Positions 15,421-49,065 of a DNA stretch of 58,723 bases are shown here, one piece after another. The translations under genes and the position numbers were made by a program. Source of the DNA: a virus. The stretch covers positions 1 through 58,723 of the IMG/VR virus record IMGVR_UViG_3300045955_000216; one strand, given 5' to 3'. Under the pieces are notes generated by a model, which saw nothing but the letters and a program-made list of their open reading frames with translations, had not been told where the DNA came from and ran no database searches. Within the stretch, counting starts at the first letter, position 1. Each line of letters starts with the position of its first letter.

Positions 15421-16448
15421 TCCGGCCGTTCGACGGCGCGCGCGGGCGCACCTATCGGTTCCGGATCGTCCGCCAGGGGCAGCTCTACCAGGGCAAGGGG
15501 TTCGCCTCTTACCAGGCCGCCCAGGACGCCGAGGACCTCCAGCTCGCGCGGCTCGCCGGCTCCGGGCTCCCGGCGAGTGACCTCTTCTGGGCCACGGCCG
15601 TCCAGCAGTACCAGGCGGCGAAGGCGAAGAAGGTGGACCTCCTCGCGCACGACGTCCCGCGGCTCGACTGGTGGGGCCGCTTCTTCGCCGGCCACCAGGT
15701 CGCCACGCTCGGGGGCATCACCCCGGAGCTCCTCGACCTCGCGAAGCTCCGCCTCGAGGCCGAGGGCCGACACGGGTCGACCCAGGTCCGCTACTTCGCC
15801 GTCCTGCGCGGGCTCTTCCGCCTGGCGATCCGCCGGCGGTGGGTCGTCGGCCTGGCGGACCCGACCGCGGCCGTCGACTGGCCGAAGGAGACCACGGTCC
15901 CGCGCCGGGTGCCCACGGCGCTCGAGGTCCGCCGGCTCGTGAATGCCGCCGAGCCCGTGATCCGGCCGCTCGTCCTGGTCGCGATGCTCACCGGCCTCCG
16001 GATCTCGTCCATCCTCCGGCTGACGGCCGAGGATGCCCGGATCCGGCCGGGGCTGCTCCGCGTGGTCCAGAAGGGCGGCCGCGAGCTCTGGCTCCCGATG
16101 ACGCCGGTCCTCGCGGCCGTCGTCCGCCGCGCGCCGTTCACCTGGCCGGACGGGCGCCGCGTGACGCGCTTTCCACGGAAGGCGTGGCGCCGGAGCCTCG
16201 CGGCCGCCGGCGTCGCCCCGTTCGGGTTCCACCAGCTCCGCCACCTGGTCGGCGACTGGCTCACTGAACGCCAGACGCACGGTCGGGTCGTCCAGGCGAT
16301 GCTCGGGCACTCCTCCCAGCGGATGACTGAGCGGTACACGCGGCCGCGGGATCCGGCCCTCCGGCGCGCCCAGGTGACGATGGCGCGCCTGCTCGGGCCT
16401 GTACCTCCGCGAGTACCCCCGCGTCAGCTAACTACGCGCCGCGGTTGA
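15417..16448 (+). CDS. int: Tyrosine-family site-specific integrase, 343 aa
   Basis: Arm-binding and core-binding domains occupy about 1-160 and the catalytic domain follows. Catalytic residues are visible: R195 in TGLRISS, K219 in VVQKGGRE, H272 and R275 in FHQLRH, H298 in LGHSS and nucleophile Y307 in TERYTRP. ATG 15417 overlaps the lipoprotein stop. The stop codon is directly followed by a partial tRNA-Phe gene, so the enzyme very likely recombines attP with a host tRNA-Phe gene. Confidence 0.92.
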   Translation: MIRPFDGARGRTYRFRIVRQGQLYQGKGFASYQAAQDAEDLQLARLAGSGLPASDLFWATAVQQYQAAKAKKVDLLAHDVPRLDWWGRFFAGHQVATLGGITPELLDLAKLRLEAEGRHGSTQVRYFAVLRGLFRLAIRRRWVVGLADPTAAVDWPKETTVPRRVPTALEVRRLVNAAEPVIRPLVLVAMLTGLRISSILRLTAEDARIRPGLLRVVQKGGRELWLPMTPVLAAVVRRAPFTWPDGRRVTRFPRKAWRRSLAAAGVAPFGFHQLRHLVGDWLTERQTHGRVVQAMLGHSSQRMTERYTRPRDPALRRAQVTMARLLGPVPPRVPPRQLTTRRG

Positions 16449-16942: not shown

Positions 16943-17391
16943 GCACGGAGCTCGGGCGCGGCCGCCTGGTCCCAGGCGGTCCGGCCGCCCCACCGCAGCC
17001 CGAGCCAGGCGAGCCACCTGAGCCACCGCGGCACGTCCTCGGAGACGGAGACCGCCTCGGGATAGACGGCGTCCGCGATGGCCCGGCGCTCCGCGTCCGA
17101 GAGGCTCGGGAACATCCCGAGGAGGTGCTCGCGGTAGACGTAGTCGTGGATGACCCCGGCCTTCCGGGCCCGGCCGCCGAGCAGACGATAGAGCAGGAAC
17201 CGGCGCGGGACGGAGGAGAGGTCGGTCCGGAACCCGACGGGCACCTCGAGCCGACACCTGAGCACCGCGGAGTCGTACCGGAGGACGCCCAGGAGGTCCC
17301 AGACCGGCTCGCCCTCGAGGTTGACCCCGACCTCCTCGAGCTTGAGGGGGTCGAGGAACTTCGGGCGAATCCCCCCGGTTACGGCACCCAC
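16939..17391 (-). CDS. DUF1353-like protein, 150 aa
   Basis: VPVGFRTDLSSVPRRFLLYR and AGVIHDYVYREHL match the remembered DUF1353 phage pattern (GF-x-TD-x-SVPR and HDYxYR). The C-terminus is hydrophobic with tryptophans (RWLRWLAWLGLRWGG). Often found near lysis genes. GTG start at 17391 inside the end of the upstream gene. Confidence 0.7.
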   Translation of the reverse strand: MGAVTGGIRPKFLDPLKLEEVGVNLEGEPVWDLLGVLRYDSAVLRCRLEVPVGFRTDLSSVPRRFLLYRLLGGRARKAGVIHDYVYREHLLGMFPSLSDAERRAIADAVYPEAVSVSEDVPRWLRWLAWLGLRWGGRTAWDQAAAPELRA

Positions 17392-18593
17392 GGGAGCGGC
17401 GGGATGGGCGGCGGCGGGAGCTTCTCGGCCTCGGGAAGAAGGAGCGCCCGGGCCGCGTCGCCCTTCGTGTTGTTCGTCTGCGTGCCACAGCCGCTCTTGA
17501 GCCAGATGTCGTTATACCCGCCGCTCGGGAGCAGATTGCTCACGACGTTGTTGCGGTAGAGGTTGTCGTGGCACCCGGTCTGCCCGGTCTTGTAGAACGC
17601 CCCGAGCCCGATGTTGCCCGTGCTGAGTGAGGGGAGGTTGGTGTCGAGGACCTTGTTTTCTTCCACCAGCGCGAAGGCCGCGTTCGAGGCGTTGAAGCCG
17701 CACTGGCTGGTCCGCACCATCACGTTGCGGGCCACGTAGATGTGCGCGGCCGACTCAAAGGCGACCCCGCACCCGCTCGCCGCCCGGCCCCCGATCAGGT
17801 AGTTATCCGTGATCCGCGCGTGCGCCGAGTGGCCGACGTTGATCGCGTCCTCCTGGCCGGCGCCCCCGTTGTGGACCTCGGTCTCGGTGTTCGCGTAGTA
17901 GTTCCGGTCCGCGACGCACCCCCGTTCCAGCGGGCCGTTCTGATTGCACCGCCAGAACTGGACATGCTGCCCGCGTGGAAACGGCCCCTTCGGGTTCTCG
18001 GAGTAATTGCCCTTCACGGTGACGCTCTGGCAGTCCATCGCCTCGACGCCGGTCTCGAAGTCGCGCAAGATGTTGCCTTGCACGAGGACGTCCGCGCAGG
18101 CCGTCGCGAAGACGCCATGCTGCGAGTCGAGCGTCGTCTTCGTCCGGCGCGGGACCAGGAGGCTATTCGAGACCCGGATCCGCGCGGCCTGGTCGATCCG
18201 GATGGCATGGCCGCCGCACCCCTCGAGCTGGACGTCGTGGATGACGACGTCGGTCACGCCCACCACCCGGATACAGTCGCCGGGCGCGCCCGTGATGCGG
18301 ACGCGCGTGATGGTCTGGCCGCTGGTCGCCACGAGGGGCCCGCTCGGCGTGTAGTCGGGCGGCGGGGGAGGCGGTGGAGGAGGCGGTGGGGCCTCGAGCG
18401 CGGCGACCCGCGCCCGGAGGGCGTCGAGCTCCTGGTGGAGCGTCTCGAGCCGGGCGTCCAGCGCGTCCAGGCGGGCGACCAGGGCGGCCACGGCCGCAAT
18501 CACGGCCGCGTGGTCCTCCTGGGTCGGGACCGTCACGACCGCGTGCGCGGTCGTCGCGAGGAGGCAGAGGCCCAGCCCGAGGCGTCTCAGCAT
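17379..18593 (-). CDS. Exported parallel beta-helix (pectate-lyase-like) protein, 404 aa
   Basis: ATG 18593 gives a signal peptide (MLRRLGLGLCLLATTAHA). A coiled coil follows (about 25-70, LDALDARLETLHQELDALRA), then a run of 11 prolines and a right-handed beta-helix (about 90-380) with repeated short strands, Asn and Gly (VTVKGNYSEN, ARITDNYLIGG, YVARNVMVRT). Such folds bind or cleave polysaccharide in tail spikes. The export signal and position beside lysis genes fit a surface polysaccharide-acting protein as well as a spike. Overlaps the nuclease gene by 7 bp. Confidence 0.75.
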   Translation of the reverse strand: MLRRLGLGLCLLATTAHAVVTVPTQEDHAAVIAAVAALVARLDALDARLETLHQELDALRARVAALEAPPPPPPPPPPPDYTPSGPLVATSGQTITRVRITGAPGDCIRVVGVTDVVIHDVQLEGCGGHAIRIDQAARIRVSNSLLVPRRTKTTLDSQHGVFATACADVLVQGNILRDFETGVEAMDCQSVTVKGNYSENPKGPFPRGQHVQFWRCNQNGPLERGCVADRNYYANTETEVHNGGAGQEDAINVGHSAHARITDNYLIGGRAASGCGVAFESAAHIYVARNVMVRTSQCGFNASNAAFALVEENKVLDTNLPSLSTGNIGLGAFYKTGQTGCHDNLYRNNVVSNLLPSGGYNDIWLKSGCGTQTNNTKGDAARALLLPEAEKLPPPPIPPLPWVP

Positions 18594-31752: not shown

Positions 31753-32141
31753 GCCGTGGCCTCCGTGGGGGCCGTCCACCACTCGAGGGCATCCGTCACC
31801 GCGTAGCACCGCCAGCCGAGGTACGCCAGCCCGAGCCCGTAGGGCGAGCCCGTCGGGATCGCCAGGCAGACGCGCGCCCAGCGGCTCGCGAGGTCCGCGC
31901 GGATCGCCCCGAGCAAGGTCCGGATCCCGGCGAAGGACCGGGCCGCCGCGTCGATGGCGACGTGCTCGAGGTAGAACTCGCCGCGGATCGGGCCGCCCGA
32001 CGCGACGCCGATCGGGGTCCCGTCTCGGTCCAGGCGCCACCAGGTCCGATCGGGGCCGTGATGCACGGGGCCCGGGATCATCGCGAGGAGCCGGGGCACG
32101 AGCGGGTCGTCCCAGCCGATCCGCTGGACGGTGTGCGTCAC
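31749..32141 (-). CDS. GNAT-fold-like protein, 130 aa
   Basis: FYLEHVAIDAAARSFAGIRT followed by LLGAIRADLASRWARVCLAI and YGLGLAYLGWRCYA resembles an acetyltransferase fold in strand-helix order. The acetyl-CoA loop (Q/RxxGxG/A) is not evident. Small GNAT-like proteins occur near podoviral ejection genes. Coupled by ATGA at both ends. Confidence 0.5.
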   Translation of the reverse strand: MTHTVQRIGWDDPLVPRLLAMIPGPVHHGPDRTWWRLDRDGTPIGVASGGPIRGEFYLEHVAIDAAARSFAGIRTLLGAIRADLASRWARVCLAIPTGSPYGLGLAYLGWRCYAVTDALEWWTAPTEATA

Positions 32142-32626
32142 GGCTGGTCGAACCCCCGCTCCTGGATCAGGAAGAGGAGCGCGCGCACGACGCGGCGGAA
32201 GAAGGTCCGCTGGGCGTCGGTGTAGGTCGGATCCGGAAAGAGCGCGTCCACCATCGCCGCGACCTGGGCCGGCGTCGGGAGGTTCTCGCCCTGGATGGCG
32301 ACGTGCGCGGTCTCGGTCCGTGTCCGGAGGGCGAGCTCCGCCGCCAGGCGGGCCGCCTCGCGGGCCTCAAGGCTCGACGGGAGACCGGGGTTGTGAGCGA
32401 GGACGATCGCCTCGGCGGCCGCCGCCTGGGCGTCCGGCACCGTGATTCGGAGCCGTTGCCCGCCGTCGGATTCGACGACCGCGGGGATCCCCGCCGCCTG
32501 GAGCTGCTCCTGGAGGAGCGGCGCCTTGTGCGGCCGGAGATAGGTGCGCGTCTCCGCGCCGGCCTCGAGGGCCAGCGTCCCCACCAGGACCAGGACGACT
32601 CCGACGTGTCGCATCGCGTGCCTCAT
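32138..32626 (-). CDS. Exported helical protein, 162 aa
   Basis: ATG 32626 overlaps the upstream stop; ATG 32614 is also possible. Signal peptide MRHAMRHVGVVLVLVGTLAL with a cleavage site after EAGA. The mature protein has a beta segment (RLRITVPDAQ) and helices. It lies in the tail gene block, so either a secreted protein or a virion protein with an unusual signal. Confidence 0.6.
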   Translation of the reverse strand: MRHAMRHVGVVLVLVGTLALEAGAETRTYLRPHKAPLLQEQLQAAGIPAVVESDGGQRLRITVPDAQAAAAEAIVLAHNPGLPSSLEAREAARLAAELALRTRTETAHVAIQGENLPTPAQVAAMVDALFPDPTYTDAQRTFFRRVVRALLFLIQERGFDQP

Positions 32627-33927
32627 GGCCCGAGCCAGTAGATCCAGAACTCCGGGGCGTAGTTGGTCGCCGCCTGCGTGTTGAGCGACCCGCCCGAGTC
32701 CTGGAAGGCGTTGCACTCGACATAGTTGGTGGCCGCCAGGCTGTACGCGGTGACGACCGTCGTCTCCTTGCCGGCGGTGGCGTTCGCGGCCGGCTGCCGC
32801 TGCCGCGCGAGGCTCGTCGTCCCGCCGAGCATGATCTCGACCCCGCGGTCCCCGGTGGCGTGCCCCGCCCACTGGAGGGAGCACCCGATCAGGTACTTCC
32901 CGGCCCCGCCCGCGGGAATCGTGAGCCGGCTCGTCTGGGAGCTCGTCGAGTGGAAGTCCGAGGTATCGAACCGCTCGGTGTCGAACGTCACCGCGGTCCA
33001 GGCGTTGTTGCCGATCGAGATGTTGAGGCTGTTGTAGACGCGCGCCCCGGTGGCGGCCGTCGCCGTCGCCTCCGAGGGGTGCGGGGTGAAGACCGGCGAG
33101 AGGTAGCCCTCGACCAGGATGGCCGCGTCGATGTAGGCGGTCGTGTCTCCGGTGTCGACGCTGAGGGCCCCGGTGATGCCCGTCGCCGACCCGGAGAGGG
33201 TCCGCGTGACCGTGAGAAATTCCCAATTCGCGCCGCCCGTGTGGTAGCTCGAGAAGGTCGTCGCGACCCCGTCCGCGAGCGAGAGTCGGGCCCGCGTCGC
33301 CACGGTGGCCCGCACCCAGGCCCCGAAGGTGTACGTCCGGTCGCGGAAGTAGCTCGTCCCGCCCGCGGCCGTCGAAATGGCCTGGCTCAGGCTGGCGTCG
33401 GCGCCGCTCCGCGTGACGGCCGCGCTGTAGACGGCGTGCTTGATCTGGCCGGCGTCGCGCGCGATCGTCGCGCCGGCCCCGGACAAGGTCCAGTTATCCG
33501 GCGCGACGGTGGTCCCGTTCGACCACTTCTCCATCGACCCGTTGAGGAGGTAATTCGGTCGGTTGGGCTCGACGGGCGTCTGGTACCAGTAGACGCCGCT
33601 CGAGGCCCCGCGGGTCAGGAGCTTGAGCTGGTACCGGAGGCGCTCGAGCTCGCCGGCGAGGGAGGTGGCCTGGCTCTCCGCTCCGCTCGGATACGGGTTC
33701 ACCGCCGACTGCATCTGCGACACGGTGGCGGAGTAATCGTCGACGCATTGGGTCGTGCTGTTCGTGGTGGCGGCCTGGGTCATGCTGTTGTTCAGGTCCG
33801 GCGCCGTGAGGACCTCGTTGTTCGACCAGACCTTGTAGACGCCGCAGTTCCCGGCGCCCTCGGCCTGGGCCCCTGCGAGGATCAAGACCGCCAGGGCGAG
33901 GCCGCTCCACTGTCGTCGGTTGAGCAT
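32623..33927 (-). CDS. Exported fibre/receptor-binding protein with CBM and C1q-like domains, 434 aa
   Basis: ATG 33927 gives signal peptide MLNRRQWSGLALAVLILAGA. Residues about 120-290 resemble carbohydrate-binding modules (NYLLNGSMEKWSNGTTVAPD, NWTLSG, YTFGAWVRA, WEFLTVTRTL). The last 120 resemble a C1q/TNF-like trimer (AWTAVTFDTERFDTSDFHST, RLTIPAGGAGKYLIGCSLQW). Such heads cap tail fibres and bind receptors or glycans. An export signal is unexpected for a virion part. ATGA overlap downstream. Confidence 0.7.
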   Translation of the reverse strand: MLNRRQWSGLALAVLILAGAQAEGAGNCGVYKVWSNNEVLTAPDLNNSMTQAATTNSTTQCVDDYSATVSQMQSAVNPYPSGAESQATSLAGELERLRYQLKLLTRGASSGVYWYQTPVEPNRPNYLLNGSMEKWSNGTTVAPDNWTLSGAGATIARDAGQIKHAVYSAAVTRSGADASLSQAISTAAGGTSYFRDRTYTFGAWVRATVATRARLSLADGVATTFSSYHTGGANWEFLTVTRTLSGSATGITGALSVDTGDTTAYIDAAILVEGYLSPVFTPHPSEATATAATGARVYNSLNISIGNNAWTAVTFDTERFDTSDFHSTSSQTSRLTIPAGGAGKYLIGCSLQWAGHATGDRGVEIMLGGTTSLARQRQPAANATAGKETTVVTAYSLAATNYVECNAFQDSGGSLNTQAATNYAPEFWIYWLGP

Positions 33928-33929
33928 GG

Positions 33930-35561
33930 TCACTCCGCCACCTTGGCCCCGATGAAGGCCTTGATGATCTTGAAGCTCGCGCCGGCTTCGCTGTTGTAGC
34001 CGCGGAAGGAGATGCGCGTCCCCCGCCAGAGGAGCCGCCGGCGCCGGTGGATGATGCGCGCCTCCGCTAGGCGGTCGACGTCGAGCACGAACACGCCGAG
34101 CGGCACCCCGGTCGCGGCGACATTGAACGCGAGCGGCGTCAGCGTCTTGAGGATCCCGTCGATCCAGACGTCGACATACAGCGTGTGCTCCCCGAGCCCC
34201 TCCACCCAGAACTCGAGGTAGTCGAAATTCTTGATGCGCCCGCGCCACTCCGGGACAACCTCGCCCAGGTCGGTGTGGTCGGTCTGAAACTCGCCGATGT
34301 AGCCGGCCCCGTCCTTCGAGCGGTCCGGCATGTCGAGGCGGTACACATGGCCGGAGGTCGTCCCGATGTAGGGGCGGGTGATGCCCTGGTGTCGGCGCAT
34401 GGTGAGGCACGTCGCTTCGTCCCGGTCGCTGTAACAGAAGCGGGGCCCGACGGCCGGATTGTTGAAGTCGAGCGTCAGCCGATAGGGCGCCAGGGGGCCC
34501 GCGGCCTGCGTCCCGAAGGCGTCGGCCTGGAACGCATCCGCCTGGAAGGCGGGGACGGTCTGGCCGACCGAGCCGCGGGCCGGGAGGAGCGCATAGGCGA
34601 GGGATTTATCCCCGTACCAGACGATCGTCGCGCGCCCGAGGGCCTCAGCGTCGACATGCTCCCGGATCCAGGTCCCGAGCTTCGGCGTGGTGAGGTCGGA
34701 GCTCTCCGCGTCCCGCTCGACCGAGGTGGCGGACAGCGCGTGGACCGAGCCCTCGGTGTCGATGAAGGCCACGTCATTCGGGATCGGCGTGACGCCCCAG
34801 GGGCCCGAGGTCCCCACCGCGCGACTCTGGATGTCGTACCGCCAGGCCGCCGGATCGGGGTTCGACGTGTCAATGACATAGACCCCGTTCGGCCGCTTCC
34901 AGAGGACGAGCATCTTCCGGAAGGACATCGCCGCGACGATCTCGTCGCCCTCGCCGGGCCCGATCGGGATCGAGCCGGCGCCGGTCCCCACGAAGTCCTC
35001 GTGGTCGCTGGACGGCGTGTAGTAGGCCGTGTGCTGGAGGAAGGCCCAATGCCGCCCCTCGTGGATGATCCCGACGGACGGCTGGCGGGCCCCCACCCAA
35101 TCGAGGGGCCGCTTGGCGGGGTCGAGCGGCGCCATCGTGAGGAAGTCCCCGACGCCGACCTGGATGGGCGAGGCCCCGGTGTAGAGGAAGAGCTTCTTCG
35201 GGGCCCCGGGGACCTCCTGGCCGCCCTCGACGAAGTAGGGCGGCCGGCCCGTGTTGATCGCCCCCTCGGGCCGGGCCGTGATCGCGAAGGTCCAGCTCAC
35301 GCCGTCGTCGAGGTAGATCCCCCCGCCGATGGTGACGGCGACGGTGCGCTGGGTCGCCGACTCCGGCCACCAATCCCAGAGCCCCCGGATGGGGCCGGGG
35401 AGCGCCGAGACGTTCTGCCGCTGGGCCCCGCCTTCTTTCTCGATCTGATTGTTCTCGAGGGTGATGCCGCGGGCCAGGATGAGGCCCGTGATCGGGACCC
35501 GCCGGGGCCCATACATCCCGTCCTCGCCGACGGGGATCTGGGGCTTGAGGCCGGTATACAT
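33930..35561 (-). CDS. Beta-propeller-like tail (nozzle/stabilisation) protein, 543 aa
   Basis: Repeated blades with Trp and Asp (VDTSNPDPAAWRYDIQS-type, AFIDTEGSVHALSAT, PYIGTTSGHVYRLDMP) fit the propeller tail proteins that follow the head-tail adaptor in P22-like phages. A short duplication reads FQADAFQADAFG. Directly after the adaptor gene (three-base gap). Likely tail nozzle. Confidence 0.65.
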   Translation of the reverse strand: MYTGLKPQIPVGEDGMYGPRRVPITGLILARGITLENNQIEKEGGAQRQNVSALPGPIRGLWDWWPESATQRTVAVTIGGGIYLDDGVSWTFAITARPEGAINTGRPPYFVEGGQEVPGAPKKLFLYTGASPIQVGVGDFLTMAPLDPAKRPLDWVGARQPSVGIIHEGRHWAFLQHTAYYTPSSDHEDFVGTGAGSIPIGPGEGDEIVAAMSFRKMLVLWKRPNGVYVIDTSNPDPAAWRYDIQSRAVGTSGPWGVTPIPNDVAFIDTEGSVHALSATSVERDAESSDLTTPKLGTWIREHVDAEALGRATIVWYGDKSLAYALLPARGSVGQTVPAFQADAFQADAFGTQAAGPLAPYRLTLDFNNPAVGPRFCYSDRDEATCLTMRRHQGITRPYIGTTSGHVYRLDMPDRSKDGAGYIGEFQTDHTDLGEVVPEWRGRIKNFDYLEFWVEGLGEHTLYVDVWIDGILKTLTPLAFNVAATGVPLGVFVLDVDRLAEARIIHRRRRLLWRGTRISFRGYNSEAGASFKIIKAFIGAKVAE

Positions 35562-38551: not shown

Positions 38552-39697
38552 TTACGAGATGTTGCTGCGGAAGGTCCGCACGGTGATGACACCGTTGTCC
38601 ACGCTGTTGAAGACCGCCTTCGTCACGTCGTAGATCGCGGAAATGGCGAAGCCGATCTTGTTGGCGTAGTCGAAGGACTGCTCCACCCACTGTGGGCGCT
38701 CGCCCCAGGCGAAGACGCCGGCCTGGCGGCCCAGGAAGAGGTTCTCGGAGCCGGCGAGGTTGCTGCCGGCGCCCCAGGTCGTCGCGAGCGCGGTCCGGGT
38801 CGAGCTCCGGATGACCACACCGTCCCAGATGCCCTCGGCGCCGGTGAAGAGGGGGTTCATCTTCCCCCGCTCCTGCGCCTCGCGCTGGGCCTGGGACCAC
38901 GCGGGATCCTTGAGCTTGAGGTCATGCAGCGAGTCCGGGGAGACGACGAGCAGGAAGTAGTCCCCGCCCTCGATCCGGACCGGGAAGATCTGCGGCGTCG
39001 CCTTGCGGGCGATGACCTTGACCCGCGAGATGAGGGCCAGGTCGAGGTAGTCGCCCGACTCGATCGTCGCCGTCGAGACCGCGTCCCCGCCGTAGGCCAC
39101 GCGGCCGGACGAGGGCGAGGTCGAGAGGGCGGTGAAAATCTTGTCGTCGATCTGGTCCGCCAGCCAGTCCTTGAGGAGCTGCTTCGCCACCTTGCGCTGC
39201 TCGAACGCCGTGCGGCGCTCGGACAGCCGGCCGGCGAGGCGGACACCGTTCCGGTACTGGTTGAGGGTGACGTCGTCGGAGTGGAACGTCATCGCCTCTT
39301 CGGAGCCTTCCAGCGTCGTGTCGCCGGTGACGCCGGCGCCGGTGAGCTGCCGCGCCAGGGTGAAGGTGATCTTCTCGCCGGGCTTCCCGTCGAGCTCTTC
39401 CTTGACCTGGATGATGGCGTTGACCTCCTTCTGGAGGTACGGCGCCATGAAGACGGCCTCGGGCAGTTCGAGCCAGATGTCGTCGGACCAGGCCTGGACG
39501 GCGATCGCGGCGCCGCCGGCCACGGTCGTGTCGGCCCCGCCCGAGATGGACAGGCCGAGGCGGAGGAGCCGCTGGGTCGGCGTCTCGAGGAGGCGTGGGG
39601 CCTCACCGGCCGCACGCAGGAGACGGGTCGGCGTCCAGAACAGCGTGACGAGCGCCGCGAGGACGCTCGCCCACAGGGTCCGGATGGTGGCGATCAT
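38552..39697 (-). CDS. Major capsid protein, N4-gp56 family, 381 aa
   Basis: WSDDIWLELPEAVFMAPYLQ, RQLTGAGVTGDTTLEGSEEA, VRLAGRLSERRTAFEQRK and LLKDWLADQIDDKIFTALS are typical of N4-gp56-type capsid proteins. GGAGGAG before ATG 39697 supports the long form, which adds about 50 residues including a hydrophobic segment (LWASVLAALVTLFW). That extension may be a scaffold-like or membrane-interacting arm. Next to scaffold and portal genes as expected. Confidence 0.85.
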   Translation of the reverse strand: MIATIRTLWASVLAALVTLFWTPTRLLRAAGEAPRLLETPTQRLLRLGLSISGGADTTVAGGAAIAVQAWSDDIWLELPEAVFMAPYLQKEVNAIIQVKEELDGKPGEKITFTLARQLTGAGVTGDTTLEGSEEAMTFHSDDVTLNQYRNGVRLAGRLSERRTAFEQRKVAKQLLKDWLADQIDDKIFTALSTSPSSGRVAYGGDAVSTATIESGDYLDLALISRVKVIARKATPQIFPVRIEGGDYFLLVVSPDSLHDLKLKDPAWSQAQREAQERGKMNPLFTGAEGIWDGVVIRSSTRTALATTWGAGSNLAGSENLFLGRQAGVFAWGERPQWVEQSFDYANKIGFAISAIYDVTKAVFNSVDNGVITVRTFRSNIS

Positions 39698-40891: not shown

Positions 40892-42940
40892 TCACGGGGT
40901 CCGCATCCCGGCCTGGCGACGGGCCGTCGTGACGCCGTCCTTCGGGATCGGGAGCGCCCCCGGCTCGTAGGCGTTCGGCTGGCCCCGCTGGGTCCGCCCG
41001 GGGATCGGGGGCGGCCCGGCGGCCCCGGGCATCGCCGCCGCGGGCGGGGTGGCGACGGGGTTCCCGTCGGCGTCGATGAGGCCCTGCCGCTGCATGAGGG
41101 TCCGGATCCGGGCCAGGACCCGCTCCCGCTCCGGGATGTCCGAGAGCTCGACCACGAAGTCGACCAGGACCGGGGCCAGGGCCGGCGCGCGCTGGATCAG
41201 GTCCATGAGGGTCTGGGTCGCCTGCATCCGGGCGGTCGGGGTCGACGGCGAGTCGGCGATCATGACGTCGATCTTCACGTCGGGGATCCGGTTCGACGTG
41301 GTGATCGCGCCGCTCTCGGCGTCGACCTGGCGCTGGTTGAGGGTCACGAAGTCGGTGTCCGCCGCGCCGGTGTCCAGGCGGACCGTCCGCTCCGCGGTGT
41401 AGACCTGTTGGACGCGCTTCGCGAAGCGCCGGGCGATCTGCCGGCGGGACCGCTTGTAGTTGTCGAAGATGGCGGTCGCGATGATCTGCCCCTGTTGCTG
41501 CCGGCGCGCGATCGCGATGCCCGAGGCGTCGGCGTCCCGCTGCCCCATGAGGTCCGCGTTGACGCCGCTGATCTCCTTGATCTCCTGCTTCGCGACGGCC
41601 TGCATCTGCCAGACCCAGGGGGGCATCTGCGGCGGGGTGACCTGTTGCGGGACCGGGGCCTCGCGGCTCCGGAGCCAGTAGACGTGCCCGGCGCCCTGGC
41701 CGCTCTCGAGGCCGGACTCGTTCTCGAGGGTCCCGCGGTGGGCGAACCAGCGGATCGCGCCGAAGCGAGCGATGTTGTCGGCCATCGCGGAGCGGCGCTT
41801 GTTGACCTCCCGCTGGGGGTCCTTGAGGTTCCGGACGATGCCCAGGATCTCGTCGAGCTCGCGGTAGCAGACGAACGGGACGAAGGGGTAGTCCTGGGTG
41901 TCGTTCTCGAAGGGGTTCCCGTGCTCGAGCTCGATCCCGAGGGCCGGCAGGATGACGCTCATCTTGACCACGCGGCGCTGCCGGCGAATCACCCGGACGT
42001 CCTCGTCGCGCTGGGCCCAGGCCCGGGCGGCCTCGAGGGTGACGGGGTCGTCCGGGATCTCCTCGACGCGGTCCTCCCGGAGGTCCACGAGGAGGTGGAC
42101 CGTCTCCCACTCGCGGAACCAGGCTTCGACGATCCGGACCTCGTGGGCCGTCTCGTCGTAGAAGCTGATCGCGTCGAGGATGTCGCGCCGCCGGTAGTTA
42201 TCGAGCGGGTCGACGCCCTCGACGATCTGCTCGCGCACCTTGCCGGCGGCGACGGCGTAGGTCTCGACCGCCCGGCGAATATCCGTCTCGTGGTCCGGCC
42301 AGGCGGCCACCACGTCGTCGACCGGCACCATCCGATGCCAGAACTGCTCCCGGGCGTCGCTCCAGTCGTACCGCTCGCTGTAGGGATCGGCGAGCCACTC
42401 GCCCAGGCGGATCTTCCGGAGCTCGACCTCGCCGTGGATCGGGTCGCTGTCGTAGTTGATGCCGACCCGCCAGGTCCCCAGGCCCGTGACGACGCCGTCC
42501 TTGAAACCCTCCGAGAGGATCCACTCCCCGTCCTGGTTGTCCATCTCGCGCTTCATGAGGCGCCCCAGGAGGGTGACGTTCTCGAGGTCCTCGCGCCCCT
42601 CGGGGATCGGCTTGGCCTCGAGGCGCGCGGACCGCTCGTAGCCGGTCAGGACCTCGACGACCGGGCGGATCTCGTTGATCGTGAGGACCGTGCGCTCCTG
42701 GGCCTCGAGCTTCCGGCGGACGTCCGGATCCCACTGTTCGCCGATGACGAAGAGGTAGTCTTCGCCGGCCTGGCGGCGCCACCGCTGCCAGAGCGGGTGG
42801 GTCCAGTATTCGACGAACCGCTGCCGGAGCCGGTCCACGCGCGCCTGGGCCGCCGCCGGCTGGTCGGGCGACGCCGCGGCCCAATCGGGGTACCCGAGGA
42901 ACTTGCCAAGGGTCCGGGAGTGCAGCTCGCCGACGGCCAT
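40892..42940 (-). CDS. Portal protein, P22-like, 682 aa
   Basis: RFVEYWTHPLWQRWRRQAGE, YLFVIGEQWDP, RPVVEVLTGYERSARL, DGVVTGLGTWRVGINYD and WLADPYSERYDWSDAREQFW match P22-type portals. The C-terminal 150 residues are Pro/Gln-rich. Forms the dodecameric DNA gateway at one capsid vertex and docks terminase. Large for the family's core, as usual in this group. Confidence 0.88.
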   Translation of the reverse strand: MAVGELHSRTLGKFLGYPDWAAASPDQPAAAQARVDRLRQRFVEYWTHPLWQRWRRQAGEDYLFVIGEQWDPDVRRKLEAQERTVLTINEIRPVVEVLTGYERSARLEAKPIPEGREDLENVTLLGRLMKREMDNQDGEWILSEGFKDGVVTGLGTWRVGINYDSDPIHGEVELRKIRLGEWLADPYSERYDWSDAREQFWHRMVPVDDVVAAWPDHETDIRRAVETYAVAAGKVREQIVEGVDPLDNYRRRDILDAISFYDETAHEVRIVEAWFREWETVHLLVDLREDRVEEIPDDPVTLEAARAWAQRDEDVRVIRRQRRVVKMSVILPALGIELEHGNPFENDTQDYPFVPFVCYRELDEILGIVRNLKDPQREVNKRRSAMADNIARFGAIRWFAHRGTLENESGLESGQGAGHVYWLRSREAPVPQQVTPPQMPPWVWQMQAVAKQEIKEISGVNADLMGQRDADASGIAIARRQQQGQIIATAIFDNYKRSRRQIARRFAKRVQQVYTAERTVRLDTGAADTDFVTLNQRQVDAESGAITTSNRIPDVKIDVMIADSPSTPTARMQATQTLMDLIQRAPALAPVLVDFVVELSDIPERERVLARIRTLMQRQGLIDADGNPVATPPAAAMPGAAGPPPIPGRTQRGQPNAYEPGALPIPKDGVTTARRQAGMRTP

Positions 42941-44269
42941 CTAGAGGAGCTCCACCAGGATCAGGTAGGGGCGGACGCTCAGGTTCGAGCTCGCGCTACT
43001 GTGCTGCGCCGTGATCTCGAGTGTCTGGTCGGCGGTGGAGTCGACCGTCAGGCCCGTGTGGGGCGAGTGCCCGGCCGGGAGCGCCGCGCCTGGCTGCCCA
43101 CCCGTGACGCCCGCGTTCCCGGCCGACGGATCGTAGAGGCCGGAGAGCGAGCCGATCTGGGCGTTGGTCGCTCCGACCGCGTGGAGGAGCCCATCGTACC
43201 GGAAGGCGAAACGGGTCGCCGAGGCGTCAATGGCTACGCCGTTGAGCGTGCCGAAGGTCGTGCCGCCGTATTTCATCCGGACGGTCGTCGTGATGCCGCC
43301 GCCGGTGTCGTTCAGAAGGTCGAGGAAGACCGTGACGCGGAGGCCTCGGCTCGTGCCGAGCGTCCCGCCCTTGATGGTCGGGGCCGTCGTGAAGAGGGAG
43401 GTTTCCGTCGTCGTGTTGACAATGTTCTTGATCGGGTTCCCGACCTCGCGGAAGAGCACCCCGCTCAGGGCGACCGTCTGCCCCGTCGCGTCGAGGACGT
43501 TCAGCCGGTTGACCGCCGGGGTCTCGGTCGGGACGAAGAGCCGGACGCGGTTCGCCGACGGGGTCGACGGGGGCGTCATCTCCTCGAACTGGAAGTAGCT
43601 CGCCCCCGGGAGGGAGGCCGGGTCCACCTGGGGGAGCGTCGCCCCCAGGAGGACCGCCGTGACCGTGCCGGCGCCCCCGCCGCCGTAGGCGGTCGTGGCG
43701 ACCGCGAAGGCCCCCGCTGGCGGGGAGGCCGAGCTCGTCATGAGCGTCCCGCTATCCTGGGCGGCGAGCGTGGTGGCGCTCTTGACCAGGTAGCGGCCCC
43801 GGGTGACGTTCCCCTGGACCTTTACCGTCACCAGGCCCCGGTGGTAGAACTTCCCGGCGACGTTGTTGGAGATGGACTCGGCGGCGACGACATAGGTCTG
43901 GAGGCTGTTGAGCGTGTCCCCGAGCGTCACCGCGGAGTCGTTCGCGGTGTCGATGGCGACGACGTCGTTCACCGCGAGGGAGCCGCCGGTCTTGTTGGTG
44001 AGGGTCAGGTAGCTCGGGCCGTAGATGTCCGGCGCGGCGACCCAGGACCAGCCGTCGGACGCCCCGGTGTCCCGCTGGAAGAGCTGGCCCGTGGTGCCGC
44101 CGTCGATCTGGTGGCAGTCGTTCCAGTCGCTCGGCCGGACCAGAGAGGCGTCGGCGCCGTCCGGCTTGCCGGACACGAAGGAGTGCTTGAGGCACTGGGC
44201 GTCGGCCAGGCCCGGCGCCAGGCCGAGCCCGAGGGCCGCGAGCAGGATCCACGCGAGCGTGCGTCGCAT
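42941..44269 (-). CDS. Exported fibre-like protein, 442 aa
   Basis: GGGAGGTGAGG precedes ATG 44269. Signal peptide MRRTLAWILLAALGLGLAPG with ADAQ before cleavage. The mature protein is beta-rich, with DNDxA-type repeats and RVRLFVPTETPAVNRLNVLD; the C-terminal 140 residues could be a receptor-binding head. It lies between portal and other fibre-like genes. Confidence 0.6.
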   Translation of the reverse strand: MRRTLAWILLAALGLGLAPGLADAQCLKHSFVSGKPDGADASLVRPSDWNDCHQIDGGTTGQLFQRDTGASDGWSWVAAPDIYGPSYLTLTNKTGGSLAVNDVVAIDTANDSAVTLGDTLNSLQTYVVAAESISNNVAGKFYHRGLVTVKVQGNVTRGRYLVKSATTLAAQDSGTLMTSSASPPAGAFAVATTAYGGGGAGTVTAVLLGATLPQVDPASLPGASYFQFEEMTPPSTPSANRVRLFVPTETPAVNRLNVLDATGQTVALSGVLFREVGNPIKNIVNTTTETSLFTTAPTIKGGTLGTSRGLRVTVFLDLLNDTGGGITTTVRMKYGGTTFGTLNGVAIDASATRFAFRYDGLLHAVGATNAQIGSLSGLYDPSAGNAGVTGGQPGAALPAGHSPHTGLTVDSTADQTLEITAQHSSASSNLSVRPYLILVELL

Positions 44270-44282
44270 CGTCCTCACCTCC

Positions 44283-45074
44283 CTAACAGCCCACACCCAT
44301 GAGGCTGCGCGTCATCGGACAGGTCACCACCGCACCCTCTAGGGCGATCGTCATCATGCCCTTCGTGCTGTTGGCCGAGGTCGTGTTGGTCGTCGCCCCG
44401 TAGGCTCCGGCCGTCGCCTTCTCGCCGGTGACGAACATCACGCGCCCGTCGTTCCCCGAGGCGTGGCCGAAGTTGTTGGCGGCCGTGTCGTAGCTCGTGG
44501 TGATGTTCGCGAGGTCGGTGTTGGTCCAGGTCGCGCCGAAGTTCTGCGCGTCGTCCATGAGCGTCGCCGCGATGACCACGAGGCAGTTATCGGCCGTCGT
44601 CGTGGCCCCGGTCGCGGACAGGCTCGTGTCGCTGGTGGCGTCCACGTTGCCGGCCGTGATGTTCCAGGGGTCGCCGGTCGTCTTGACCCCCCGGAAGCAG
44701 ATCATCATCCCGGCGTTGTGGTCGCCGGCATCGTTCGTGGTCGGCCCGGTTGTGCCGCCGCCGTCGTAGCGCGCCCAGAAGACGGCGAGCCGGGTCGAGG
44801 ACGCGCCGCCGGCCGCCCCGGTGCCCTGGGGCGAATTGGTCACCTGCGCCCAGGTCTGGCTCCCTTGGGTCGCGATGCTGGAGGCCGTGGCATCGTTCGC
44901 GGTCTCGATGAAGAGCAGACACACATCGTTCGTCGCGAGCCCGGCCGGGAAGGCGACCTGGACCCCGCCGACGCCGTTGTTCGTGGTCACGTCGTTGACG
45001 ACGGTCGGCATCCCGGCCAGGGCCGGGCCGGCCAGGGCGAGGACACACGCGAGGGCGGCCAGCAAGCGGCGCAT
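44283..45074 (-). CDS. Exported beta-sandwich protein, 263 aa
   Basis: Signal peptide MRRLLAALACVLALAGPALA. The mature part has VCLLFIETANDATASSIATQ, LAVFWARYDGGGTT and CLVVIAATLMDDAQNFG, a jelly-roll-like pattern common in phage and surface proteins. Two cysteines close the C-terminus. Starts directly after the upstream stop. Confidence 0.6.
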   Translation of the reverse strand: MRRLLAALACVLALAGPALAGMPTVVNDVTTNNGVGGVQVAFPAGLATNDVCLLFIETANDATASSIATQGSQTWAQVTNSPQGTGAAGGASSTRLAVFWARYDGGGTTGPTTNDAGDHNAGMMICFRGVKTTGDPWNITAGNVDATSDTSLSATGATTTADNCLVVIAATLMDDAQNFGATWTNTDLANITTSYDTAANNFGHASGNDGRVMFVTGEKATAGAYGATTNTTSANSTKGMMTIALEGAVVTCPMTRSLMGVGC

Positions 45075-45716
45075 TCAGTGGACCGGCACCGCGCCGGGGG
45101 TGCCGTGTAGCGGGACGGCCCCGGGGGTCCCGTGGTCGGGCGGGCTCGGGAGGGGACCGTGTTCGTCGCCAAGCTGCTCGAAGGACACATGCGCGAAGGT
45201 CGACGGTCCGGTCGCGCCGTCCCCGATCACGATTTGGGCGACGGTCGACGCGAACGCGACCGATTGCGGCGTGTTGCTCGACACCCAATCGTTGTGCGTC
45301 AGGTCGGCACTGGTGGCGTCGAGGAAGTTGTTAGCCGACGCCGTGTTCCCCGAGACGGTGAACTTGTCGGACCCGTTGTCCCGGATGATGGCTTTCATGC
45401 CGGTGCGGGCGTAGCTAGGATCGCCCATCGCCACACGCACGTTGTAGGTGCCGGCGGCGGTCAGATCGACGCGGACGGTGACCTCGCTGGCTTCGGCGCT
45501 GGGGAAGTGAAACCCCGCGAGCTTGGCGTTGTTGCTGCTATTCCGGTCGCGCTCCTGAATCCCAATCACCGAGGTATACCCGAATGTTACCCCGTTGCGG
45601 GTGACAGGGTAGTCTTCGCCGTTATCTCCGCCATCGTCGAGCAGATAGGTGTCATCGGCCGCGTCGGTGACGTATCCCGACGTCTGGCGGAAGTTGATCC
45701 CCTTCGTCCAGGCCAT
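45075..45716 (-). CDS. Beta-sandwich protein with C-terminal GTPGAVP repeats, 213 aa
   Basis: No signal peptide. A jelly-roll-like domain (VTVRVDLTAAGTYNVRVAMG, KAIIRDNGSDKFTVSG) resembles carbohydrate-binding modules. The tail ends with two HGTPGAVP copies. Likely a fibre or receptor-binding protein. Confidence 0.6.
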   Translation of the reverse strand: MAWTKGINFRQTSGYVTDAADDTYLLDDGGDNGEDYPVTRNGVTFGYTSVIGIQERDRNSSNNAKLAGFHFPSAEASEVTVRVDLTAAGTYNVRVAMGDPSYARTGMKAIIRDNGSDKFTVSGNTASANNFLDATSADLTHNDWVSSNTPQSVAFASTVAQIVIGDGATGPSTFAHVSFEQLGDEHGPLPSPPDHGTPGAVPLHGTPGAVPVH

Positions 45717-46018
45717 CAGTGCGTCCCGCTCATCGAGCCGTCATCGGGGATGGCGAAGATGCAGAGACTCACGGTGTCGGGGTCCAGCGCCACGAGATCA
45801 TGCATCGCTCGCGCCGGCACCTCGATCCACTCGCCGGGGCGCAACGTCTGCACCCGCGCCGGGGCGTTCTGGATGCGGACCTCGAGCCGCCCCGCGCAAC
45901 ACACCGTGATGTGGTCCTGCCCGTGGGTGTGGGCGGGCAGCGTGTCGCCCACGCCGTCGTAGTCCACGCGGCGCACGAACACGTGCCCAAAGAGCCCGTT
46001 ATCGACGGCGAGAGCCAC
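45716..46018 (-). CDS. Small cupin protein, 100 aa
   Basis: HTHGQDHITVCCAGRLEVRI holds the cupin metal motif (HxH and a later H), and LRPGEWIEVPARAMHDLVAL holds the second motif with PxxxxH. Single-domain cupins bind metal and may be enzymes or sugar-binding. GTG start overlaps the upstream stop. Its place among fibre genes suggests a sugar-related or structural role. Confidence 0.75.
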   Translation of the reverse strand: MALAVDNGLFGHVFVRRVDYDGVGDTLPAHTHGQDHITVCCAGRLEVRIQNAPARVQTLRPGEWIEVPARAMHDLVALDPDTVSLCIFAIPDDGSMSGTH

Positions 46019-46455
46019 TAGGTCGGCTCCGTCGCCGTGCCGGCATCGGGCCAGAGGCTTTGGTGGGGCGGCACCGTGGCGAGGAGCGTGTCCATGCCGT
46101 TGTTGATCTGCGCCGCGGTCGGGGTGCTTGTCGACAAGTTGAACTGTGCCGTGATGACGGGGTCCAGTTCCGTCAGGATGTCCACCGCGTCACTCTCCAC
46201 GACGCCGACGCGCTGGAAGCCGTTGAGCAGGACATCTCGCTTCGTGCCCGGCACGCGGAACGGATCGAGCCAGTCGAGGCGCTTGCGATACTCCCGGGCG
46301 TCCTGCTCCATGACGATCGCGACCTGCGCCGGGGTCCGGCCCGCCGCGAGGTTGGCCTTGTACGATTTGGCGTTGGCGCGCATGTCGCGCCGCAGCCCTT
46401 CGAGGTTGCGGATCACCTGGAGAAGCAGGGCAATACTTTCGAGCGCAGCCATCAT
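46018..46455 (-). CDS. Hypothetical virion-region protein, 145 aa
   Basis: AAGGGGGA precedes two ATGs (46455, 46452). Helical N-terminus (LLLQVIRNLEGLRRDMRANA) and KRLDWLDPFRVP in the middle. No signal peptide, no recognised family. Confidence 0.6.
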   Translation of the reverse strand: MMAALESIALLLQVIRNLEGLRRDMRANAKSYKANLAAGRTPAQVAIVMEQDAREYRKRLDWLDPFRVPGTKRDVLLNGFQRVGVVESDAVDILTELDPVITAQFNLSTSTPTAAQINNGMDTLLATVPPHQSLWPDAGTATEPT

Positions 46456-46461
46456 TCCCCC

Positions 46462-49065
46462 TTAGTCGTTCGCCGCGACTTCATACGAGATGAAGCCGGT
46501 AATGCGGCTTGAGCCCACTTGGGTCAGGCACACGTTGTTGGTGTCCACGCCGGTTTGCATGAAGGGCACCCCGGTCGCCATCGCCACCCCGCCTTGCGCC
46601 GCCGACGACACCCCGCTGCCCTCAGTCGTCGAGCCGATGATCGCCGTCGGCGAGGTCGCGCAGACGGAGCCCGTGCCCTCGATGAGGTTCCATGTCTCGG
46701 CCGCGTTCGCGTTGATGAAGATGGCGCAGAAGTAGACCCGCTGGCCCGAGGTGCCCGTGATGAGCTGCGTGTCGGCGGTCTGGCTGATCGCGATTTTCTG
46801 CGTGCAGGCGATCGGCTGCCGCACCGTCAGCCCGCGATCCGCGTTGAGCGGCCGCCCGGTCGAGGACTTGATCTCGTTCCCGGCGTCGTCCCGGATGCGG
46901 ACCGCCGAGTCGTTCGAGACCGTGACGCGCGGGATGCCGGACCCGCTCGCGCCCGTGCCGGTCACGGTGGCCGAGCCCCCGAACTGCGCGACGTTGACGC
47001 TCGCGTTCGCAGGGAGCGAGAGCACGTCCACCTGCAGCTCGCCGCTCGTATCCGTCGCGATGTCCTGCGTGTTGCCCGAGCCGTCCTTGCCGCCGATCCG
47101 CACGGGGTTCCCGGAGACGGCCGCCCCGTCGGCCGCCGTGCCGGCCACCGTGGCCGTCGGCAGCGTGAGGATGTCGACCTGCAGCTCCCCGTTCGTGTCC
47201 GTCTTGAGGCCCCGGAGGTTGGTCCCGTCCGTGCCCCCGGCATACATGGCGTGCGTCGGCGGGGACCCGCCCGGCGGGCGCTCGGCTCCCCACGGCGGGA
47301 CCGAGGGCGCGGACGTGGCGCGGAACGCCACCGTCGCGGTGCCCGAGGTGTACGCGTCCGCGCGGACGCGGACGTTCGAGACGCCGGCCAGGAACGGGAA
47401 CACGAACTGCCCGTTGGCGGTGATGGACTGCGTCATCGCCTCGCCCGCGATGGACCAGAGATCGGTCGCGGACCAGGTCGTCCCGCCGTCGAGCGAGACC
47501 TCGGGGATCAGGGTCGCGACCCAGGTCCCGGTGATCGTGACGCCGGCCCCGTTGATGCCCGCGCTCAGCGCGAGCGCCGACGTATCCTCGTCGGCCGTGA
47601 TGGTGTCGGACGCGGTCTGGACCGAGGCCCCGCCCGAGACCCGCAGGGCTCCGGTGCTGTCGACCTGGAGGACCGTGCGGTCCTGGTCGGCCGCGAGGGC
47701 GGTGCCCGCGTCGTTGCGGACCACCCCAGCGAGCGTGAGCTTGTCGCCGGAATTGTGGGCCGTGTCCTCGTCGTACTGCGTGCCGCCGCCAGCCGAGACC
47801 TCGTTGCCCGAGGCATCCCGGAGGTTGACGTGGAAGGCCCGGTTCTCGGTCAGACGCGCCGCTCCGGCCTCGCCTTCGGCAAGCGTCGACGGGGACGTAT
47901 CGTCCCGGTAGCCACCGACGGGCACCATGTTCCCGGATCCCGCCGTGAAGCCGGTCTTGTCTTGCTGGCTGACCCCGGAGCCCGTGCAGTTGCCGCAGTT
48001 GACGGCGAGCTGGTTCGAGCCGTTGACACTGGCGGTGTTGGTCCCGTCCCACACACGAACCGCTGAGTCGTTCGAGACAGTGACTCGAGGGATGCCCGCG
48101 CCCCCGGTGCCGGTCCCCGTGGCGACAGCCGATCCGCCGAACTGCGCGACGTTGAACGGCTCGTTGTCGGGGAAGCTCCCGATCGTGACCGAAGGAAGCG
48201 TCAGGACATCGACTTGTAGCTCCCCAGACGTATCGGTCGCGATGTCCTGGGTGTTGCCGGAGCCGTCCTTCCCACCGATCCGTACTGGGTTGCCGCTGAC
48301 CGCCGCACCATCGGCGGCGGGACCAGCCACCGACCACGGAGCCCCGCCCTGGTTCGCGGTGACCGTGCCCGAGACCGGCTGCGTGACCCCGGACCCGTCG
48401 ACGTGGAGCCGGCCGCTCGACACGTTGGCCTGCGTGGTGTCGCCCGCGCCGTCGCGGATAATGCCGTCCTGGTTGGCGGCGGTCGCGGCACCGGTGGGCA
48501 GCGGGAGCGACGCCGCGCTGATCGGCTGCGTGACGCCCGAGCCGTCGACGTGGAGCCGGCCGCTCGAGACGTTCGCCTGGGTCGTGTCCCCGGTGCCGTC
48601 GCGGACGATCCCGTCGTAGTTGGACACGGAGACCGTGCCCGTGACGGTGACGTCGTTGTTGGCCCCGAGGTTGACCAGGAGCCCGTCGGTGCTGTTCCCG
48701 GGGCAGCGGTCCCAGGTCGACCCGTCGAAGCAGTAGAGGTACGAGCGGATGATCGAGAGCGTGACGCTGTTGGACTCGTTGTCCGCCGGGGTGCCGCCGG
48801 CCGGGAAGCGGCCCGTCAGGGTGCTGTTGAGGAGCAAGGTCCCGAGGGTCGCCTCGGTGGCGGCGCCGGTCGGGAGCGGCAGCGAAGCGGCCGACACCGG
48901 CGACGTCACCCCGGAGGGATCCACCAGGAGCCGGCCGCTCGTGACGTCGGCCTCGCCCTGGCCGGCGACGCCGTCCTTGATCCGGACCGGGGTCTCGCCC
49001 TGGGCGAGGGCCAGGGTCGGGAGGAGGAGGAGCTCGAGGAGCCAGAGCGCCAGGATCCGTCGCAT
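46462..49065 (-). CDS. Exported repetitive beta-fibre protein, 867 aa
   Basis: ATG 49065 forms TGATG with the upstream stop. Signal peptide MRRILALWLLELLLLPTLAL, then AQ. The body is built of imperfect repeats: GRLHVDGSGVTQP, NPVRIGGKDGSGNTQDIATD followed by TSGELQVDV (twice, near-identical), and FNVAQFGG-type with GIPRVTVSNDSAVR (twice). The C-terminus has paired cysteines and TGVDTNNVCLTQVGSSRITG. Looks like a trimeric fibre or adhesin. Confidence 0.65.
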   Translation of the reverse strand: MRRILALWLLELLLLPTLALAQGETPVRIKDGVAGQGEADVTSGRLLVDPSGVTSPVSAASLPLPTGAATEATLGTLLLNSTLTGRFPAGGTPADNESNSVTLSIIRSYLYCFDGSTWDRCPGNSTDGLLVNLGANNDVTVTGTVSVSNYDGIVRDGTGDTTQANVSSGRLHVDGSGVTQPISAASLPLPTGAATAANQDGIIRDGAGDTTQANVSSGRLHVDGSGVTQPVSGTVTANQGGAPWSVAGPAADGAAVSGNPVRIGGKDGSGNTQDIATDTSGELQVDVLTLPSVTIGSFPDNEPFNVAQFGGSAVATGTGTGGAGIPRVTVSNDSAVRVWDGTNTASVNGSNQLAVNCGNCTGSGVSQQDKTGFTAGSGNMVPVGGYRDDTSPSTLAEGEAGAARLTENRAFHVNLRDASGNEVSAGGGTQYDEDTAHNSGDKLTLAGVVRNDAGTALAADQDRTVLQVDSTGALRVSGGASVQTASDTITADEDTSALALSAGINGAGVTITGTWVATLIPEVSLDGGTTWSATDLWSIAGEAMTQSITANGQFVFPFLAGVSNVRVRADAYTSGTATVAFRATSAPSVPPWGAERPPGGSPPTHAMYAGGTDGTNLRGLKTDTNGELQVDILTLPTATVAGTAADGAAVSGNPVRIGGKDGSGNTQDIATDTSGELQVDVLSLPANASVNVAQFGGSATVTGTGASGSGIPRVTVSNDSAVRIRDDAGNEIKSSTGRPLNADRGLTVRQPIACTQKIAISQTADTQLITGTSGQRVYFCAIFINANAAETWNLIEGTGSVCATSPTAIIGSTTEGSGVSSAAQGGVAMATGVPFMQTGVDTNNVCLTQVGSSRITGFISYEVAAND

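What the first reader, a model, noticed from the sequence alone, without database searches (positions are those of the whole stretch)
42941..49065. Fibre-like proteins with Sec signal peptides
At least three genes here (42941, 44283, 46462), plus 32138, 32623 and 17379, start with classical signal peptides although virions assemble in the cytoplasm. They may be displayed on the lysogen or lysing cell as decoys or adhesins, or the signal may be retained as a virion membrane anchor.
Basis: partly seen in the sequence, partly recalled or inferred. Interest (0 to 1): 0.7.

Follow-up and report, generated by a model that had tools for sequence, protein, structure and literature searches.

The report
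Tail-fibre-like phage proteins with export signals
A temperate tailed phage and many uncultured relatives carry clusters of tail-fibre-like genes whose products start with a bacterial secretion signal and have gained paired cysteines, which suggests that these phages send part of their host-attachment apparatus out of the cytoplasm before the cell bursts.

Summary
SP1-SP6 (46462-49065, 44283-45074, 42941-44269, 32623-33927, 32138-32614, 17379-18593, all minus strand) begin with Sec/SPase-I-type signal peptides. Three results argue against chance. (1) Homologues without a signal begin where the mature protein begins: 80/80 relatives of the SP3 N-terminal motif lack a signal, as do three tandem homologues (56-61% identity) in the same slot of the close relative G001. 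(2) Signals coincide with cysteines: the window's SP3 alone has a new Cys pair, SP4-type domains have theirs only when a signal is present, and SP proteins have 1.21% Cys against 0.25% for the other late proteins. (3) The SP1 C-terminal jelly-roll domain (four conserved Cys) defines an unannotated phage family in which every intact, unambiguous N-terminus has a signal; its loci have 16.2% signal-bearing genes against 1.2% in control loci. Most likely these are late, Sec-exported, disulfide-bonded fibres/adhesins that wait in the periplasm and act at lysis, plausibly by docking on virions. Docking is inferred; export and cleavage are untested. Lysogen display and membrane anchoring are less likely. 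I found no published description (held library only).

The parts
46462..49065 (-). SP1: signal peptide + SGVTQPVSAASLPLPTG-type repeats + C-terminal jelly-roll domain with four conserved Cys
46468..46845 (-). SP1 C-terminal domain (family-defining; Cys 14/40/62/106 of the domain conserved in 39-40 of 40)
46018..46455 (-). small gene between SP1 and SP2, no signal, no Cys
45716..46018 (-). cupin-like small protein, no signal
45075..45716 (-). beta-rich 213-aa protein, no signal, no Cys
44283..45074 (-). SP2: signal peptide + minor-tail-like domain (39% to Erythrobacter phage XM05 minor tail protein, which lacks a signal) + C-terminal tail CPMTRSLMGVGC shared with signal-bearing genes downstream of other SP1 homologues
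42941..44269 (-). SP3: signal peptide placed directly before a conserved virion-protein N-terminal domain (xLKHxFVSxKxDGxDxxLVRPSxWN); its only two Cys (26, 52) flank that motif
40892..42940 (-). portal protein (phrog_156), abuts SP3 with 0 nt gap
38552..39697 (-). major capsid protein (phrog_334); operon context
33930..35561 (-). putative tail nozzle/stabilisation protein, judged from position and sequence only (no profile or PDB match); SP4 starts 2 nt after it
   Evidence: inference
32623..33927 (-). SP4: signal peptide + fibre-type N-terminal domain (Cys 28/61) + C-terminal domain like phrog_13989 virion structural protein
32138..32614 (-). SP5: signal peptide + small DUF2007-like domain; signal kept in G001 (start may be 32626)
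17379..18593 (-). SP6: signal peptide + coiled coil + poly-Pro + right-handed beta-helix (tailspike/NosD-like), 10 Cys in mature part
15417..16448 (+). tyrosine integrase (temperate lifestyle)

Best explanation
The genes are a modular cassette of tail-fibre/adhesin-type proteins whose N-terminus has been given a cleavable Sec signal peptide. They are made late, from the same operon as terminase, portal and capsid, are exported by the host Sec machinery, lose the signal, and fold in an oxidising compartment (periplasm of a diderm host) where the gained cysteines pair. The exported pool meets the cytoplasmically assembled virions at lysis; SP3 and SP4 keep the N-terminal domain that signal-less homologues use, so the most likely final step is docking of the fibres on released virions. 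Steps and basis: signal peptides, late-operon position, signal/Cys co-occurrence and family-wide retention are shown from sequence. Export, cleavage and disulfides are inferred (about 0.85). Docking on virions is inferred and uncertain (about 0.45). The overall confidence covers the whole chain.
For: Signals on all six genes. Signal placed exactly before a virion-protein N-terminus: 80/80 IMG/VR relatives and three annotated phages start at the motif without a signal; G001 (TerL 67%, portal 72%) has three signal-less homologues of SP3 in the same slot, 56-61% identical over about 165 aa. SP3's two Cys replace S and T of those homologues; 0/80 relatives have a Cys before the motif. SP4 domain: signal + Cys pair in 3 phages, neither in 5 loci (about 3 distinct sequences). 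SP1 repeat relatives: with signal 8-13 Cys, without 0-2. SP1 C-terminal family: the signal is present in every intact unambiguous N-terminus; C40/C62/C106 are invariant and C14 is in 39/40. Late proteins: Cys 1.21% in SP proteins against 0.25% in others, and the 2616-aa internal protein, MCP and scaffold have none. SP genes occur in runs of 2-4: 27 runs against 2 in controls. Jelly-roll model resembles virion-type proteins of uncultured Caudovirales. Operon gaps -1 to 13 nt from TerL to portal.
Against: No direct evidence of export, cleavage, disulfides or virion association. Close homologues fill the same slot without a signal, so export is not essential for the slot's function and the SP-bearing copy may have a different job. 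In MW202554 the Cys contrast between SP and other late proteins is not significant. SP5 has no Cys. Cytoplasmic assembly of all known tailed virions makes a second compartment unusual. Family members share ancestry, so the universal signal is not 40 independent events.
Confidence: 0.5

Rival explanations
1. The proteins are exported but never join the virion: late-made soluble or surface adhesins/lectins/glycan-binding decoys that coat the dying cell or debris, mask receptors, bind matrix or block rival phages.
For: Signals and Cys as above; cassette members include Laminin_G_3 lectin and GH28/pectate-lyase-like domains and a beta-helix; a C-terminal L[LM]G[VA]G tail occurs on signal-bearing genes (24 of 24 best downstream genes).
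Against: N-terminal domains of SP3 and SP4 are those of signal-less virion-type proteins and stay conserved while the C-terminal part diverges, the pattern of fibre anchors; genes sit inside the virion operon.
Confidence: 0.33
2. Lysogenic conversion: the proteins are made in the lysogen and displayed for superinfection exclusion or adhesion.
For: Integrase and repressor-like genes; SP6 lies one small gene from the integrase.
Against: SP1-SP5 are embedded without gaps in the terminase-portal-tail operon; the complete relative MW202554 has the cassette but no annotated integrase.
Confidence: 0.08
3. The hydrophobic N-terminus is not cleaved and anchors the protein in a membrane or the virion.
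For: The MCP also has a hydrophobic N-terminal extension.
Against: Short cores (mean 14 aa), [AV]xA in 26 of 36 members against 17.8 expected from shuffles, Q at +1 in 19 of 36; homologues lack the segment altogether; anchoring would not explain co-gained Cys pairs; the MCP extension is not hydrophobic in G001.
Confidence: 0.06
4. Artefact: chance hydrophobic N-termini or wrong starts.
For: A rule-based caller was used instead of SignalP; two of the six starts are ambiguous by a few codons.
Against: 16.2% against 1.2% of genes; consecutive runs; family-wide retention at low domain identity; G001 keeps signals on SP4 and SP5 with different signal sequences.
Confidence: 0.03

Closest known systems
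Bcep22-like podophages (Lessievirus DC1, JC1) and Lastavirus/Kochitakasuvirus
   Same: Portal (25-28%) and MCP (29-32%) homologues; giant internal protein; acyltransferase gene near the tail-fibre slot
   Different: Their tail fibres and late proteins show no signal peptide (two weak sub-threshold scores); JC1 fibre gp56 is listed among its virion proteins (PMC9144972)
Phage proteins starting with the xLKHxFVSxKxDGxDxxLVRPSxWN domain (e.g. Rhizobium phage RHph_TM3_14A gp6)
   Same: Homologous N-terminal domain of SP3
   Different: 80/80 relatives lack a signal peptide, and none has a Cys before the motif
Podoviridae sp. ctLwi270 (MW202554), uncultured, complete
   Same: SP1 homologue plus three more signal-bearing genes directly after the portal; SP2-type LLLGVGP tail; tail-collar gene after the stabilisation gene starts with a signal-like core
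   Different: No annotated integrase; different capsid family; annotated only as hypothetical/lectin/glycoprotein
Bdellovibrio mosaic adhesive trimer (MAT) fibres (PMC10769870)
   Same: Phage-fibre-like proteins shown on a bacterial surface
   Different: Cellular genes used for predation, not in a phage structural operon; no sequence relation tested
Sec-exported phage lysis proteins (Lys44 of fOg44, SAR endolysins, reviewed in PMC6116005)
   Same: Phage proteins using the host Sec system during late infection
   Different: Lysis enzymes, not fibre-like structural proteins
Bacillus endospore appendage (Ena) subunits
   Same: Best structural match of the SP1 C-terminal model (7a02, Z 8.6, rmsd 5.2, 104 aligned), a disulfide-linked pilus subunit
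   Different: 8% identity; Z near the level of common folds, so only a lead

Membership tests
Sec/SPase I signal-peptide proteins | Positive n-region, 8-15 aa hydrophobic core, A-x-A-type site | tested here: met
   All six genes and the SP1 family; rule-based, not SignalP
Sec/SPase I signal-peptide proteins | Actual translocation and cleavage | not testable with these tools
   Needs reporter fusion or N-terminal sequencing
Tat substrates | S/T-R-R-x-F-L-K motif | tested here: not met
   No such motif in any of the six (sequence); SP4's RR is not kept in G001
Bacterial lipoproteins (SPase II) | Lipobox with Cys at +1 | tested here: not met
   No L-x-x-C at the predicted site; SP3 Cys is at +2
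Phage tail fibres/receptor-binding proteins | Position in the virion operon and conserved N-terminal anchor with divergent C-terminal part | tested here: met
   SP3 and SP4
Phage tail fibres/receptor-binding proteins | Presence in the virion | not testable with these tools
   No virion proteome
Phage lysis exports (endolysin, SAR endolysin, spanin) | Muralytic domain or spanin topology | tested here: not met
   No such Pfam or PHROG match for SP1-SP6
Ena disulfide-linked pili | Jelly-roll subunit fold | tested here: inconclusive
   Z 8.6 at 5.2 A, 8% identity
Superinfection-exclusion/lysogenic-conversion surface proteins | Expression from the prophage | not tested
   Only operon context available, which argues for late expression

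The most novel reading that the evidence does not exclude
Some tailed phages build their virions in two compartments: capsid and tail in the cytoplasm, host-recognition fibres exported by Sec and disulfide-bonded in the periplasm, joined only at lysis.
Probability: 0.38. Interest if true: 0.88.

Novelty: new variant of a known kind. Interest (0 to 1): 0.7.

Why it matters
Tailed-phage virions are taken to assemble wholly in the cytoplasm. A conserved, multi-gene set of fibre-like proteins with Sec signals and matched cysteine gains would mean that some phages export part of their attachment apparatus. That affects how fibres fold, how lysates act on neighbouring cells, and how receptor-binding proteins are recognised in genomes: pipelines may discard signal-bearing genes as host contamination. 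It also provides an unannotated, signal-bearing phage domain (the four-Cys jelly roll) and a C-terminal L[LM]G[VA]G tail as markers for finding more.

Tried and rejected
A single-protein scan with the portal found nothing. An SP2 scan with a two-row alignment confirmed no relative. The first C-terminal alignment was too divergent to scan, and a closer subset worked. Two DNA-pattern scans for the LMGVGC tail gave mostly out-of-frame chance hits; the two full-length genes found have signal-like N-termini (one called, one by eye) and one hit is a fragment. The SP3 N-terminal domain model was useless (pLDDT 35), so the Cys26-Cys52 distance could not be checked. PDB sequence searches with the SP1 domain profile and with p33930 found nothing. 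In the MCP I rejected a signal peptide: the extension is not hydrophobic in G001. Apparent exceptions in the family were examined: L112 looks frameshifted, L115/L143 has its signal in another frame (frameshift), L144 is ambiguous, and five are cut by the contig end. Host: only three of about 85,000 genomes contain the domain (Acidobacteriota, Terriglobia and Nitrospiraceae MAG contigs), too weak to name a host. Eight literature searches found no report of Sec signals on tail-fibre-type proteins; the library lacks subscription journals and preprints.
Full report
The window is an IMG/VR phage record of 58,723 bases, 72% GC. The minus strand carries a podovirus-like late block: terminase, portal (phrog_156), capsid (phrog_334) and a 2616-aa internal protein. 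Portal and capsid are 25-32% identical to Bcep22-like DC1, LASTA and R18. A tyrosine integrase and a repressor-like HTH protein make it probably temperate.

Observation. No Tat motif or lipobox is present. I used a rule-based caller checked on eight E. coli signal peptides. It also calls the MCP and two membrane proteins, so I relied on comparison, not on the calls alone.

The signal is an addition to a phage protein. SP3 residues 26-55 match the very start of ordinary phage proteins. A scan of IMG/VR with this N-terminal motif confirmed 501 relatives; the best 80 were read, and in all 80 the motif follows the start codon within a few residues with no signal peptide. In the close relative G001 (IMGVR_UViG_3300043178_000202; TerL 67%, portal 72%) the slot of SP3 holds three tandem homologues, 56-61% identical over about 165 residues, again without a signal. 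Their C-terminal parts diverge, as in tail fibres. SP2 likewise resembles a minor tail protein of Erythrobacter phage XM05 that lacks a signal.

Signals come with cysteines. SP3 has only two Cys, 26 and 52, flanking the motif; the G001 homologues have S and T there, and none of the 80 relatives has a Cys before the motif. In SP4, the three phages with a signal (window, G001, L147) have a Cys pair in the N-terminal domain, and the five signal-less loci (about three distinct sequences) have none there. SP1 repeat relatives with a signal have 8-13 Cys, those without have 0-2. In the window's late block Cys make up 1.21% of SP proteins and 0.25% of the rest (31/2568 against 22/8834 residues, p about 2e-8), and the capsid, scaffold and 2616-aa protein have none. 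In MW202554 the difference is in the same direction but not significant. Pairing of cysteines needs an oxidising compartment, so this is the best sequence evidence that export happens. It remains an inference.

A family in which the signal is the rule. The last 126 residues of SP1 form a domain found in 41 IMG/VR loci and in only three of about 85,000 bacterial and archaeal genomes, all MAG contigs. In 50,697 annotated phages it occurs once, in the uncultured podovirus MW202554. Its four Cys are conserved in 39-40 of 40 sequences. AlphaFold2 gives an all-beta jelly roll (pLDDT 85.5) like small virion or uncharacterised proteins of uncultured Caudovirales (33 matches at E 1e-3 or better). There is no PDB match by Foldseek at that level; the best VIA match is an Ena disulfide-linked pilus subunit, Z 8.6, a lead only. 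Every member with an intact and unambiguous N-terminus has a signal peptide; the exceptions are contig ends, two apparent frameshifts and one ambiguous case. The [AV]xA motif follows the core in 26 of 36 members (17.8 expected) and Q follows the site in 19.

A cassette. The signal-bearing genes come in runs of two to four next to this gene, in MW202554 and L137 right after the portal. In family loci 121 of 746 genes are called, in control loci 12 of 991; runs of two or more number 27 and 2. These loci were chosen by homology to SP1 and share ancestry, so the figures describe the family and are not independent trials. Members include a Laminin_G_3 lectin and a GH28-like beta-helix protein. In 24 of 44 loci a signal-bearing gene within 7 kb downstream ends in L[LM]G[VA]G plus a few residues, often as C-x(n)-GVGC; SP2 ends CPMTRSLMGVGC. 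Control loci show one similar ending. Its role is unknown. In at least one locus (L107) a tape-measure-like gene is present, so the cassette is not confined to podoviruses.

How it probably works. SP1-SP3 lie in one gap-free run from terminase to portal, and SP4-SP5 follow the putative tail-nozzle gene, so they should be made late. The proteins would then be exported, cleaved and oxidised before lysis. Because SP3 and SP4 keep the N-terminal domain used by signal-less homologues, I favour docking on virions when the cell opens; attachment of purified tailspikes to virions in vitro is long known for P22 (own knowledge). The main rival is that they are released as adhesins, lectins or decoys. 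Lysogen display fits poorly with the operon position, and membrane anchoring with the cleavage-type sites and the dispensability of the segment in homologues.

Novelty. Phage use of Sec is known for lysis enzymes (PMC6116005), and phage-like fibres with surface display are known in Bdellovibrio (PMC10769870). I found no account of Sec signals on tail-fibre-type proteins of tailed phages, within a library limited to open-licence papers.

Noticed in passing
window 44283-45074 C-terminus; L010, L093, L094, L105, L131, L137, L139 and others: Conserved C-terminal tail L[LM]G[VA]G(C/P) on otherwise dissimilar signal-bearing phage proteins, often with a Cys pair (C-x(n)-GVGC); could be a sorting or docking signal.
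   Followed up: partly
window 38552-39697: Major capsid protein has an N-terminal extension of about 53 residues before the region aligned with Bcep22-like capsids; hydrophobic here, basic and Trp-rich in G001.
   Followed up: partly
window 18587-19207: GmrSD_C/HNH-like nuclease (just below the Pfam cut-off) with a hydrophobic, signal-like N-terminus and four Cys, next to SP6: a possible exported nuclease in the lysis region.
   Followed up: no
L155 5431-9070 (G001): Three tandem paralogues of the SP3 anchor domain with differing Gly-rich C-terminal parts and no signal, a possible fibre-tip diversification array.
   Followed up: partly
window 20860-28710: 2616-aa internal virion protein with no cysteine at all; phrog_21, phrog_6651 and weak virion RNA polymerase and ParB-like matches.
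   Followed up: no
L181 13349-14374 (MW202554): Tail-collar protein right after the stabilisation protein starts MIVLVLLFLLLSISSADA, a signal-like core without a charged n-region; same slot as SP4.
   Followed up: partly
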